Source: Sphingobacterium sp.
GTDB lineage: Bacteria > Bacteroidota > Bacteroidia > Sphingobacteriales > Sphingobacteriaceae
Assembly (NCBI GenBank): GCA_031277685.1
Contig: JAITLV010000011.1
Span: forward strand, 1 to 64,000
Length of the DNA stretch: 64,000 bases
Reading direction: 5' to 3'
The translations under genes and the position numbers were made by a program. Below the pieces are notes generated by a model. The model was given only the letters and a program-made list of their open reading frames with translations, did not search any database and was not told the DNA's origin. Positions within the stretch are counted from its first letter, which is position 1; each line of letters starts with the position of its first letter. Below are positions 40,838 through 43,907 of this stretch, piece by piece.

Positions 40838-41419
40838 ATGGGGGAATTATCAACATATCTGGTCAGTGCTTTCATTGGTATTAGTTTAGCCGCTGCAACT
40901 GGCTTTCGAATTTTTATGCCTTTGTTTTTACTGAGCTTAGGTTGTCGTTTGGAACTATTTCAGGTAGGCAATGAATGGGCTTGGGCCGGTTCTAATTTGG
41001 TATTGATAAGTACAAGCATTGCAATGCTTATTGAAATTGCGGCCTACTATATACCGGTTGTAGACAATATACTGGATACGATCGCTATTCCACTAGCGAC
41101 TATTGCAGGAACATTACTTTTTGCGGTACAGTTTACAGATATTTCACCTTTTTTTCGCTGGTCAACAGCTATTATCGCCGGTGGGGGAACTGCAGCGACC
41201 ATCAGTACTGTTTTGGCAGGCACAAGGGCTGCTTCGTCCATTGGCACTGCAGGACTCGGAAATTTCATTATTTCAACGATGGAGACCATTGGTTCTACCA
41301 TATTGACCATTCTAGCCATATTCGTTCCCTTTATGGCTGTTCTCGTCGTTTTGGCTTTATTTTATTTCTTCGGGAAATTTGGAAAAAAGCAGCTGCAAAG
41401 GAAACTCAAAAAGACCTAA
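40838..41419 (+). CDS. DUF4126 membrane protein
   Basis: A 193-residue membrane protein with about five hydrophobic helices. LVSAFIGISLAAATGFRIFM at the N-terminus and PVVDNILDTIAIPLATIAGT after the second helix are the family signature. A glycine/alanine-rich stretch around GGTAATISTVLAGTRAASS follows. The role of the family is unknown. The stop codon at 41417 touches the left copy of the 115-bp direct repeat. Confidence 0.88.
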   Translation: MGELSTYLVSAFIGISLAAATGFRIFMPLFLLSLGCRLELFQVGNEWAWAGSNLVLISTSIAMLIEIAAYYIPVVDNILDTIAIPLATIAGTLLFAVQFTDISPFFRWSTAIIAGGGTAATISTVLAGTRAASSIGTAGLGNFIISTMETIGSTILTILAIFVPFMAVLVVLALFYFFGKFGKKQLQRKLKKT

Positions 41420-41533
41420 GATCAGGTTATATGCAAAAGGTCCGGTTTATTGACAAATCCGGACCTTTTCGCAGCTGCTATCAGCCTTTTACATCGTGTT
41501 CACCTAGTCAATGACAACTTCCTGCGGTCTTTT
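41419..41533. repeat. Left copy of a 115-bp direct repeat flanking hipBA
   Basis: This segment is identical to 43370-43484 except for one base (41525, C against T). It contains a complete terminator hairpin (AAAAGGTCCGG at 41435 with CCGGACCTTTT at 41459) and, on the minus strand, the last codons of an Hsp20 reading frame. Beyond 41533 the reverse strand still encodes NLDQIKRPQEVVID, a diverged version of the Hsp20 tail DLDKVKRPQEVVID. The hipA stop codon lies inside this remnant. Confidence 0.95.
41435..41472. terminator. Terminator hairpin in the left repeat copy
   Basis: AAAAGGTCCGG pairs with CCGGACCTTTT around a 13-base loop that can pair further through TTT/AAA. It separates the convergent DUF4126 and hipA genes and can serve both. 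Confidence 0.85.
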
Positions 41534-41541
41534 TATCTGGT

Positions 41542-42804
41542 CTAGGTTCTTGCTTCTGTTTTGAATGCAGATCTCATTAATTCTTGTTCAGCTCTCGAAA
41601 TTCCTATTTCTTTTGCTAAAACTTCCCATTTTTTTACAGAAGCTAATACTTCTGCTATGATATTATTCATTTGACTATCATTCAATCTAAAATATTCCCC
41701 CACACTCTTAGCTAGATCATAATCTAAAGCATTATTATGCATATCAATATTCAAAGCTAATCCATCTTTATCAATAGAAGGATTAAGATCATAAGCGGGA
41801 GATAATTTCCATCCTTCTTTATCTAAAATAAATCCATGATTACGAAGATGGTCATCCGTATTTGAAACCGCTATATTAAATATCATCCTTCGCCACAATT
41901 GTGTTAGATTTTCATTAACCTGAAATCCATTATCTTGTATGAATTCGACGATGTCTAAATAACTCGCTGGATTATCCTTTATTGTATCTTCATTATTTCC
42001 CGTCATCGTCATTGCTGATGAAAAATGTACCCGATTAGCTCCAACTCTATCAAAACGCTTAGTAAAAAATGTATGATAATTACCATTAACATTTTCCAAT
42101 CGACATTCCGCCATTTCTATACCAGCGTTAACGGCTAATTTATAGGTTAAATATTCCCATGCAGCCTTATCAATTGTATCATTCTTAGAAGGAAACTTCG
42201 CTATCCATATTTCATTGCTTTCATCCAGAATATTAGCTTTTGGTCTTGTTCCTCCTAGAGAAGAGCCTGGGGCAATAAGTAATTTTAACCATTTATTTAT
42301 AGCTTCATTTTCTTTATCGTTCTCATAGTGAACAACAGCTTGTTGTAATTCACGGATAGTTGACCATGGAGGAGTTGATTTTTCTATATCATTATCCAAA
42401 AAATCCCCATTAATATCAAGTTTGAATCGAAAAGCCCCCATTCTGGTTTCATCATACACGCCCAATAAGAAATCAATATCGTATAAGGTTTTGGCTTTCG
42501 TCCCACTGATTTTAGCAAGCTGAACTTCTCTACGTTTCATCAGTGTGCGCCCCCATGTATCAGGCATACTATCTAAAAAAATGCCAAAATTCTCTTTATT
42601 ATTCGGGAATTGTTGTCCAGCATAAAATTGAATATCAGGATCGATCAAACGTTGTTCTTTGGTCTTCAACCACTCTTTATCATATTCAAAGCTAAAAGCT
42701 TTACGCCCCTTTGCTTGATGGGCAGATAATATACCAATAAAAGTTGGCTGTGGTAAACCAAGCCAATCGGCATAAACATATATATCAATTTTATTAACCG
42801 CCAT
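41542..42804 (-). CDS. hipA: HipA family toxin kinase
   Basis: A 420-residue HipA-like Ser/Thr kinase, the toxin of a type II system. Features are the N-terminal HipA_N subdomain (about 5-140), a serine-containing loop S181-S182 in APGSSLGGTRPKA that corresponds to the autophosphorylation loop, the ATP lysine K203 in WIAKFPS, catalytic NTDDHLRN at 315-322 and the metal-binding D339 in AYDLNPS. All key residues are kept, so the kinase should be active. In Escherichia coli HipA phosphorylates glutamyl-tRNA synthetase; the target here is unknown. It follows hipB by 1 base. Confidence 0.93.
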   Translation of the reverse strand: MAVNKIDIYVYADWLGLPQPTFIGILSAHQAKGRKAFSFEYDKEWLKTKEQRLIDPDIQFYAGQQFPNNKENFGIFLDSMPDTWGRTLMKRREVQLAKISGTKAKTLYDIDFLLGVYDETRMGAFRFKLDINGDFLDNDIEKSTPPWSTIRELQQAVVHYENDKENEAINKWLKLLIAPGSSLGGTRPKANILDESNEIWIAKFPSKNDTIDKAAWEYLTYKLAVNAGIEMAECRLENVNGNYHTFFTKRFDRVGANRVHFSSAMTMTGNNEDTIKDNPASYLDIVEFIQDNGFQVNENLTQLWRRMIFNIAVSNTDDHLRNHGFILDKEGWKLSPAYDLNPSIDKDGLALNIDMHNNALDYDLAKSVGEYFRLNDSQMNNIIAEVLASVKKWEVLAKEIGISRAEQELMRSAFKTEART

Positions 42805-42805
42805 T

Positions 42806-43087
42806 CTACAATAAATCTAAATCTTGAAGTTTACGTCCAAAAACGTCATCTGATGCTAATTTCAAGAAATCATCTTGCAAACCTAAAACCCGTAACACAT
42901 TAAAATATGCCCCCATTGCGACACTAGCATCACCTTTTTCTATAAGGTATAAAGTAGAACGAGCAATACCAGCACGTTCAGCCACTTGTACAGCTGTTAG
43001 TTTCCTCCTTTTACGAGCGAGTTTAATATTCTCTCCCATTTGTTCCAATAAAATCTGAAACTTAGGTAAAACAAGTTGTTTCTTCAT
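42806..43087 (-). CDS. hipB: HipB-like XRE antitoxin
   Basis: A 93-residue DNA-binding protein with one XRE helix-turn-helix at about residues 18-75; the recognition region is VAERAGIARSTLYLIEKGDAS. It is encoded just before hipA and should both neutralise the kinase and repress the operon. A perfect inverted repeat starts about 10 bases upstream of the start codon and fits the operator. Confidence 0.92.
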   Translation of the reverse strand: MKKQLVLPKFQILLEQMGENIKLARKRRKLTAVQVAERAGIARSTLYLIEKGDASVAMGAYFNVLRVLGLQDDFLKLASDDVFGRKLQDLDLL

Positions 43088-43095
43088 AAAACGTC

Positions 43096-43136
43096 TGTTA
43101 TTTCAAACAAAAATAAGAATTATGTTTGAAATAACA
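43096..43136 (-). promoter_or_regulatory. Predicted HipB operator
   Basis: TGTTATTTCAAACA at 43096-43109 and its exact reverse complement TGTTTGAAATAACA at 43123-43136 form a 14-bp inverted repeat with a 13-bp spacer, so the centres of the arms are 27 bp apart. A third, weaker half-like TTTTATTTCAACAC lies just upstream of transcription at about 43143. This matches the usual multi-operator layout of XRE antitoxins. Confidence 0.75.
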
Positions 43137-43369
43137 AACATTTTTTATTTCAACACATATTCTTCCCAATACCAAAATCTTTATCAGCTGGAATTTGTAG
43201 AACATGACAATGTTTACCATCAATTATCGTCCAGAAAAAGGCTAAATGACTACCGAATAATAAGAGATGGTAGATAAGGAGTATAATGTAGTACTGCGTT
43301 GTTATGCCTGGTGTGAAACACCGAACAAAAAAGATTTACGTCCCATTGCAATCCTACAAATGGACGTTT
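43137..43369. other. Non-coding interval between hipB and the right repeat copy
   Basis: No supported gene. Short open stretches without homology that I can name occur on both strands, for example a run beginning MVDKEYNVVLRCYAWCE near 43269 on the plus strand. They could be decayed coding remnants brought in with the toxin module. Confidence 0.4.
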
Positions 43370-43484
43370 AGATCAGGTTATATGCAAAAGGTCCGGTTTA
43401 TTGACAAATCCGGACCTTTTCGCAGCTGCTATCAGCCTTTTACATCGTGTTCACCTAGTCAATGACAACTTCCTGTGGTCTTTT
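43370..43484. repeat. Right copy of the 115-bp direct repeat flanking hipBA
   Basis: It matches 41419-41533 with one mismatch. Here the minus-strand portion is the genuine 3' end of the intact hsp20 gene, and the hairpin at 43386-43420 is its terminator. Confidence 0.95.
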
Positions 43485-43907
43485 CACTTTGTCAAGGTCC
43501 TTCGGAAGAATCACAGTCAACACACCATCTTCAAAACTGGCATGTACATTATCTGTGAGTACTTGTTCATTTAATTGAAATTCACGCTCAAATGCGGCTC
43601 CCAAATGCTCCTTATAGATATATGCCACCTCATTGTTGGTATTTTCCGTACAGGAAATCGTTAAGATCCCCTCATTGATACTAACCTGAAATTGCTCTTT
43701 CTTCCGTCCGGCAGCAAAAACCTGTACTTCATAAAACTCGGAATTTTCAGCAATATTTACGGGAACAAATTGCTGTCCTACTCCACCCGCTCTGGCCTCG
43801 CCTTCAAAAAAATGCTGTTGAAATTTTTCAAAACGGTCTTTGAAATGCTGACCACAAAATTTATTATGATTTGAATGTCCGTTGGAATAATGATCTCTTT
43901 TAAACAT
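43455..43907 (-). CDS. Small heat-shock protein Hsp20
   Basis: A 150-residue chaperone starting at ATG 43907. The alpha-crystallin domain spans about residues 45-140: VPVNIAENSEFYEVQVFAAG, FQVSINEGILTISC, AAFEREFQLNEQV, and ASFEDGVLTVILPKD. The N-terminus is rich in His, Asn and Lys. The C-terminal KRPQEVVID carries the usual short hydrophobic I/V-x-I/V-type anchor (VVI). It prevents aggregation of unfolded proteins. Its last codons are duplicated at the far side of the hipBA module. Confidence 0.93.
   Translation of the reverse strand: MFKRDHYSNGHSNHNKFCGQHFKDRFEKFQQHFFEGEARAGGVGQQFVPVNIAENSEFYEVQVFAAGRKKEQFQVSINEGILTISCTENTNNEVAYIYKEHLGAAFEREFQLNEQVLTDNVHASFEDGVLTVILPKDLDKVKRPQEVVID

What the first reader, a model, noticed from the sequence alone, without database searches (positions are those of the whole stretch)
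41419..43484. hipBA module inserted at the hsp20 3' end, bracketed by a 115-bp direct repeat that duplicates the gene's tail and terminator
41419-41533 and 43370-43484 are 115-bp direct repeats with one mismatch, and hipBA fills the space between them. The right copy is the real end of hsp20 plus its terminator. The left copy carries the same terminator, and beyond the identical block its minus strand still encodes a diverged Hsp20 tail (NLDQIKRPQEVVID against DLDKVKRPQEVVID) overlapping the hipA stop. Removing one repeat unit (1951 bp) restores a simple DUF4126-terminator-hsp20 junction. Rebuilding the end of a target gene is how many integrative elements enter, yet no integrase or transposase is seen. 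A recombination-borne toxin module using the hsp20 end as its landing site would be a compact, little-described route.
Basis: partly seen in the sequence, partly recalled or inferred. Interest (0 to 1): 0.7.

Follow-up and report, generated by a model that had tools for sequence, protein, structure and literature searches.

The report
Toxin pair between duplicated gene ends
A bacterial toxin-antitoxin gene pair (hipBA) sits between two copies of a neighbouring gene's end and terminator, nine related species lack the pair at that spot, and the pair likely moved in from another species by DNA recombination and not with an enzyme of its own.

Summary
In detail: 41419-41533 and 43370-43484 are a 115-bp direct repeat with one mismatch, the only direct repeat found in the 64 kb. 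It duplicates the hsp20 3' end and terminator and brackets hipBA. At the hsp20-DUF4126 site 3 of 12 genomes read carry hipBA and 9 lack it. Synonymous divergence window-G027 is 0.26-0.29 for hipBA against 0.62-1.16 for six flanking genes, which indicates transfer between species into this same site. In G027 the two repeat copies match different relatives; a second site (mscS end, G016) shows the same. Other hipBA pairs lie between duplicated ends of dnaK, a thioredoxin-like gene, tRNA-Asp and others. Different sites share little beyond operator and genes, no element ends; the window's contig has no tyrosine integrase. Best reading: recombination anchored in shared gene-end sequence with an imprecise second join, then homogenisation or loss through the repeats. 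It resembles 'insertion with long target duplication', described for restriction-modification genes. A dedicated landing site is not supported: sites vary, most hipBA loci show no repeat, and a ParE control does not show hipBA to be special.

The parts
40838..41419 (+). DUF4126 gene, left neighbour; its 3' end faces hipA and, in empty sites, hsp20
   Evidence: PF13548 E 4.6e-43; orthologue next to hsp20 in relatives
41419..41533 (.). left copy of the 115-bp repeat: hsp20 tail end, terminator, intergenic region
41435..41469 (.). terminator hairpin in the left copy (arms 41435-41448 and 41456-41469)
   Evidence: inverted repeat I7
41534..41551 (-). diverged extra hsp20 tail beyond the near-identical block; overlaps the hipA 3' end and supplies its stop
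   Evidence: 6 of 18 nt differ from the right copy; reading
41542..42804 (-). hipA toxin kinase gene, 420 aa
   Evidence: PF07804 E 4.2e-51 and PF13657; PDB sequence matches 8ezr, 7vkb, 7wcf at E<=1.3e-11
42806..43087 (-). hipB antitoxin gene, 93 aa, HTH
   Evidence: PF13560/PF01381
43088..43144 (.). palindrome, presumed HipB operator; the upstream stretch usually shared by hipBA pairs at different sites
   Evidence: inverted repeat I3; about 50-60 bp shared in most between-site pairs listed
43198..43369 (.). 172 bp of unrelated DNA between the hipB promoter and the right repeat; not found in G027 or G073
   Evidence: G027 homology stops at 43197; two weak matches in 93 genus genomes besides itself, one in a frame that looks by eye like a pseudouridine synthase; none in plasmids
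43370..43484 (.). right copy of the 115-bp repeat, with terminator at 43386-43420
43455..43907 (-). intact hsp20 gene
   Evidence: PF00011 E 3e-13; orthologues in relatives

Best explanation
The hipBA pair sits between two copies of the hsp20 gene end and its terminator, and it likely reached this site from another Sphingobacterium species by homologous recombination anchored in that gene-end sequence, with an imprecise join on the other side, and not through an integrase of its own. Shown: the repeat, the empty sites, the lower divergence of hipBA than of its flanks, and the mixed ancestry of the two copies in G027 (hsp20 site) and G016 (mscS site). Inferred: donor DNA carrying hipBA plus a gene end pairs with the same gene end in the recipient on one side, while the other side joins by short or no homology. 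That leaves one incoming and one resident copy of the gene end around the pair and keeps both neighbour genes intact. Inferred: later recombination between the copies homogenises them (window: both one type; G073: both another type) or deletes hipBA and leaves a single copy, as in the empty sites.
For: No hipBA between hsp20 and DUF4126 in 9 of 12 genomes read. dS of hipA/hipB 0.264/0.293 (window-G027) and 0.269/0.293 (window-G073), against 0.62-1.16 and 0.62-1.06 for six flanking genes. Identity window-G027 is 92.3-94.7% in the four 300-bp bins wholly inside hipBA; flank bins range from 72 to 93%. In G027 copy 1 is closest to empty-site G025 (81.4%), copy 2 to G017 and the window (68.9%, 67.6%), and the two are 50.4% alike. 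At the mscS site of G016 one copy is closest to G107 (84.5%), the other to G026 (88.7%), 77.8% alike; 14 of 21 mscS loci read are empty. Imprecise junctions: hipA borrows its stop from the hsp20 tail, and the hipB-side join in G027/G073 lies in the DUF4126 tail at a 6-8-nt match. No shared element ends. Sharp homogenisation edge, p 1.7e-5. Repeats across hipBA at 6 of 16 sites (14 genus, 2 others) against 2 of 288 random positions, one-sided Fisher p 2e-7.
Against: 11 of 19 loci, 10 of 14 family loci and 62 of 69 wider loci show no such repeat at E<=1e-10. Not every counted repeat is a gene end: G013 is unexplained, G200 and G219 look dispersed. The control is random positions, not other accessory modules; against ParE-type toxin loci hipBA is not significantly enriched (5 of 33 against 2 of 26, p 0.32). 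Near-identical copies at dnaK in Chryseobacterium potabilaquae (97.6%) and tRNA-Asp in G235 (94.5%) fit a plain target duplication equally well. A lower synonymous rate in hipBA from codon constraint was not modelled. The donor was not found and the 172 bp is unaccounted for. The microhomology is too short to test. DNA uptake by these bacteria was not tested.
Confidence: 0.52

Rival explanations
1. Circle model: recombination between the two repeats pops out a 1951-bp circle with hipBA and one gene-end copy, and the circle enters another genome by a single homologous crossover at the same gene end.
For: Predicts the flanking direct repeats and the mixed ancestry of the copies; G027's repeat spans both gene tails. 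A like idea was proposed for transposed Arabidopsis genes (PMC2869330, passages).
Against: The window's repeat does not include the DUF4126 tail that is duplicated in G027/G073, so a window-type circle alone does not give their hipB-side join. No circle was looked for in reads.
Confidence: 0.2
2. [quoted passage not shown]
For: Variable duplications of 70-205 bp; near-identical copies at dnaK (97.6%) and tRNA-Asp (94.5%); Ku in 83 of 93 genus genomes including the window's; same pattern named for restriction-modification genes.
Against: In G027 and G016 the two copies match different lineages; G088 has the repeat but no Ku match. hipBA is less diverged than its flanks yet at one shared site in three genomes.
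Confidence: 0.16
3. A cis-mobilisable remnant: hipBA lies between attachment sites at gene or tRNA 3' ends and is moved by an integrase supplied in trans.
For: Gene 3' ends, tRNA ends and terminators are usual integrase targets (general knowledge); two loci lie at tRNA-Ser and tRNA-Asp ends; the assembly holds 11 tyrosine-integrase domains.
Against: None on the window's contig; no conserved ends across sites; homology reaches into both neighbour genes in G027; hipA's own stop is lost at the join; many unrelated targets.
Confidence: 0.1
4. Assembly artefact or chimera.
For: The window's assembly is 8.4 Mb with 9% contamination; in G073 a 100-N gap lies at the repeat.
Against: Two other genomes carry hipBA at the same site with an hsp20 tail joined to the hipA end; the repeat is shorter than a usual read (general knowledge).
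Confidence: 0.02

Closest known systems
Insertion with long (variable) target duplication of restriction-modification systems (Nobusato 2000; Furuta 2010: not held here, recalled, and seen as cited in passages of PMC3031569, PMC1643837 and PMC3154945)
   Same: Small addiction-type module, long flanking direct repeat, single-copy empty site in relatives, no integrase in the module.
   Different: Cargo is a toxin-antitoxin pair; at two sites the two copies are of different lineage, which points to interspecies recombination and not simple duplication.
Homology-facilitated illegitimate recombination (PMC3240628, start of abstract in a search listing; PMC2884548, passages)
   Same: One homologous anchor, an imprecise other end, foreign DNA trapped next to the anchor.
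   Different: Inferred here from natural genomes; no transformation or conjugation shown.
Vibrio cholerae T6SS effector-immunity module displacement (PMC5361080, passages)
   Same: Toxin/immunity modules thought to enter by a shared anchor and to leave displaced pieces downstream.
   Different: There an effector gene or its end is displaced; here both neighbour genes are kept whole by duplication.
hipBA type II toxin-antitoxin systems
   Same: HipA_C kinase plus HTH HipB with upstream palindrome.
   Different: My literature searches listed no account of this flanking pattern for hipBA.

Membership tests
Insertion with long target duplication | Empty single-copy site in close relatives | tested here: met
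   9 of 12 genomes read at the hsp20 site; 14 of 21 loci read at the mscS site
Insertion with long target duplication | Long direct repeat of target sequence around the insert | tested here: met
   115 bp, about 175 bp, 205 bp at hsp20; 144 bp at mscS; 169 bp at dnaK
Insertion with long target duplication | Both copies are resident sequence | tested here: not met
   G027 and G016 copies match different lineages; open for dnaK and tRNA-Asp, where copies are 94-98% alike
Insertion with long target duplication | Cargo is a restriction-modification system (as described in print) | tested here: not met
   Cargo is hipBA
Homology-facilitated illegitimate recombination | Incoming DNA anchored by homology on one side, with foreign cargo | tested here: inconclusive
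   dS contrast and mixed copies fit; a circle would look alike
Homology-facilitated illegitimate recombination | Other end joined at short or no homology | tested here: inconclusive
   6-8-nt match at the hipB-side join in G027; too short for a test
Homology-facilitated illegitimate recombination | Occurs during uptake of DNA in this host | not testable with these tools
   Needs experiments
Cis-mobilisable or integrative element | Conserved element ends | tested here: not met
   Loci at different sites share mostly only the operator and the two genes
Cis-mobilisable or integrative element | Integrase in the element or near it | tested here: not met
   No PF00589 match on the window's contig; 11 elsewhere
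hipBA toxin-antitoxin system | HipA_C kinase next to HTH antitoxin with upstream palindrome | tested here: met
hipBA toxin-antitoxin system | Toxin neutralised by antitoxin | not testable with these tools
   Needs expression assays

The most novel reading that the evidence does not exclude
hipBA is an enzyme-free mobile module: a bare operon that travels between Bacteroidota species by carrying a copy of a host gene end and terminator as its homology arm, enters the same gene end in the next genome by homologous recombination while keeping both neighbour genes whole, and leaves again by recombination between the two copies. Long target duplication of addiction modules would then be a by-product of interspecies recombination and not of a transposition-like break.
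Probability: 0.27. Interest if true: 0.74.

Novelty: new variant of a known kind. Interest (0 to 1): 0.52.

Why it matters
How chromosomal toxin-antitoxin pairs without a mobile element get in and out of genomes is poorly explained: a review calls them highly mobile and says that how acquired ones become fixed is not yet understood (PMC2654758, conclusions section read). Here filled sites, empty sites and mixed-ancestry copies are found in one genus at two loci, which makes the route testable. If the two copies come from different lineages at most young sites, the old 'long target duplication' pattern of addiction modules gets a mechanism that uses only general recombination.

Tried and rejected
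Site-specific element: looked for shared ends between 33 hipBA loci (17 genus, 14 other genera of the family, 2 of other families) and for tyrosine integrases on the contig; neither found. Lost second hsp20 gene: G027 and G073 carry a like short tail remnant against hipA, so a decayed full gene is unlikely, not excluded. Vertical inheritance alone: spoken against by dS. hipBA-specific behaviour: not supported; with 1.2-kb flanks 5 of 33 hipBA and 2 of 26 ParE-type toxin loci have a repeat (p 0.32), one of the two ParE cases (L294) with several dispersed copies. Counting rule: a match at E<=1e-10 between 3 kb upstream and 3 kb downstream on the same strand. Short flanks kept in the counts: G088 (208 bp upstream, contig end), G032 (926 bp upstream), G055 (2111 bp downstream), G151 (337 bp downstream). 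Dropped: 8 of 80 wider loci as duplicates of genus loci and 3 for short flanks; G001, which has only part of hipA. Of 22 genus genomes with the hsp20 orthologue I read the site through in 12; in three more (G005, G016, G026) no HipA match lay within 1.5 kb of hsp20; 7 were not read. Of 30 mscS loci returned I read 21. The 172-bp stretch was searched in 93 genomes and in plasmids with no clear origin. G114's inter-repeat ORF, first guessed by eye to be RteC, is a Met-zincin-like piece.
Full report
OBSERVATION. The 115-bp repeat is as described: 41419-41533 and 43370-43484, one mismatch, spacing 1951. It runs on to 133 nt at 95%. Six of the seven mismatches lie in the last 18 nt (p 1.7e-5), so a sharply bounded block has probably been made alike or exchanged recently. 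It is the only direct repeat at E<=1e-4 in the 64 kb, and a 181-bp query around it matched no third place in the assembly. The block holds the hsp20 tail end, a terminator hairpin and the intergenic DNA up to the DUF4126 stop codon. Between the copies are hipA, hipB, their presumed operator palindrome and 172 bp of unrelated DNA (43198-43369).

THE SAME SITE IN RELATIVES. Of 93 genus genomes searched (the window's own included) 22 hold a close hsp20 orthologue (E<=1e-60). I read the site through in 12 of these 22. hipBA is present in 3 (window, G027, G073) and absent in 9, with 56-734 bp between the ends of the hsp20 and DUF4126 matches. In G027 the repeat is about 175 bp: some 42 nt at the hsp20 end and 42 nt at the DUF4126 end are kept, and the two copies have different intergenic cores. 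In G073 the repeat is 205 bp at 97.6%, next to a 100-N assembly gap and a third partial copy, so the copy number there is uncertain.

HIPBA IS LESS DIVERGED THAN ITS FLANKS. On a six-gene tree the window's genome branches first in the close group (support 82 for the rest). Synonymous divergence (own Nei-Gojobori script) from the window to G027 is 0.264 for hipA and 0.293 for hipB, against 0.62-1.16 for hsp20, DUF4126, katG and three others; to G073 it is 0.269 and 0.293 against 0.62-1.06. Between G027 and G073 hipA is 0.020, hsp20 0.073, DUF4126 0.151 and katG 0.392. Identity along the locus, window to G027, is 92.3-94.7% in the four bins wholly inside hipBA and 72-93% in the flank bins. This indicates that the pair moved between species into the same site. 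A slower synonymous rate in hipBA was not modelled.

MIXED ANCESTRY OF THE COPIES. Intergenic cores fall into types. One: G027 copy 1, both G073 copies, G103, G025. Two: both window copies, G027 copy 2, and empty-site G017. Three: G097, G015, G008, G022. G027 copy 1 is 81.4% like G025. Copy 2 is 68.9% like G017 and 67.6% like the window. The two copies are 50.4% alike. The window and G073 then look homogenised in opposite directions, and G017, G025 and G103 look like sites that kept one copy. That last step is inferred; they may never have had hipBA.

IMPRECISE JOINS. In the window hipA ends KTEART and in G027 and G073 KTET, with the stop made by out-of-frame hsp20 tail. Eleven loci at ten other sites end in a few other residues. 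On the other side, G027 and G073 join hipB's upstream DNA to the DUF4126 tail at a 6-8-nt match.

OTHER SITES. At the mscS 3' end, 37 of 93 genomes have the gene at E<=1e-120. Of 30 loci returned I read 21: 14 empty, 3 with hipBA (G016 whole; G005 and G089 with an internal deletion in hipA), 4 in which neither hipBA nor the usual neighbour was found in reach. G016's two mscS-tail copies match different relatives (G107 84.5%, G026 88.7%; 77.8% to each other). Repeats at E<=1e-10 within 3 kb on either side occur at 8 of 19 hipBA loci (17 of the genus, 2 of other families; all 8 in the genus), that is 6 of 16 sites if the hsp20 trio and the G033/G094 pair, which share flanks, are each counted once. 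Random positions in 32 twenty-kb stretches of eight genus genomes gave 2 of 288, both in one stretch (p 2e-7 by sites). Gene ends are clear at hsp20, mscS, a thioredoxin-like gene (G114, Sphingobacterium yanglingense), an unnamed gene (G088, S. rhinopitheci) and the tRNA-Ser end (G072). G013's repeat is unexplained. Of 14 loci from other genera of the family 4 have a repeat: G235 at the tRNA-Asp end, G257 unassigned, G200 and G219 apparently dispersed. Of 69 wider loci 7 have one, including the dnaK end plus the start of the next gene in Chryseobacterium potabilaquae, 169 bp at 97.6%. Others of the 7 are a paralogue tail (L213), a gene-like piece in Belliella alkalica (L252) and four not assigned. 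The dnaK case shows that the duplicated stretch can span a gene end and the next gene's start.

CONTROL THAT LIMITS THE CLAIM. With 1.2-kb flanks, 5 of 33 hipBA loci and 2 of 26 ParE-family toxin loci have a repeat (one-sided p 0.32). So this is not shown to be special to hipBA.

MECHANISM. Between different sites the loci share mostly the operator (about 50-60 bp, at times to about 160 bp, in one pair 235 bp at 67%) and the two genes, with no fixed ends; a few family pairs share more and may be at one site. The window's contig has no tyrosine integrase; 11 lie elsewhere. This argues against a site-specific element. The mixed ancestry argues against a plain target duplication at the two sites where it was tested, though Ku is common in the genus (83 of 93) and near-identical copies at dnaK and tRNA-Asp fit it. 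I favour homology-anchored recombination with an imprecise second join, of the type called homology-facilitated illegitimate recombination (PMC3240628 in a search listing; PMC2884548 and PMC5361080, passages). A circle variant stays open.

KNOWN OR NEW. 'Insertion with long target duplication' is described for restriction-modification genes (passages in PMC3031569, PMC1643837, PMC3154945; of the original papers one was asked for and not held). Literature searches listed no report of this pattern for hipBA; I judged by titles and starts of abstracts, and most subscription papers are outside that library. I rate it a new variant of a known kind.

Noticed in passing
L084 14885-15714: Sphingobacterium arenae (G013) has a second, broken hipBA about 9 kb from the intact one and in opposite orientation.
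   Followed up: partly
L153, L154: G005 and G089 carry hipBA at the mscS site with the middle of hipA missing, residues about 106-396 of the G016 protein.
   Followed up: partly
L078 3401-3500: A 100-N gap lies at the G073 repeat with a third partial intergenic copy beyond it; tandem copies of the module cannot be excluded.
   Followed up: partly
L286: A ParE-type toxin locus in G031 is flanked by a 315-bp direct repeat at 91%, perhaps the same kind of event.
   Followed up: partly
window 43198-43369: 172 bp of unidentified DNA with stops in every frame; about 30 residues weakly recall, by eye, a pseudouridine synthase.
   Followed up: yes
G000 assembly: The window's assembly is 8.4 Mb with 9% contamination, larger than its nine nearest relatives at this site (5.8-6.9 Mb), so it is probably mixed.
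   Followed up: no
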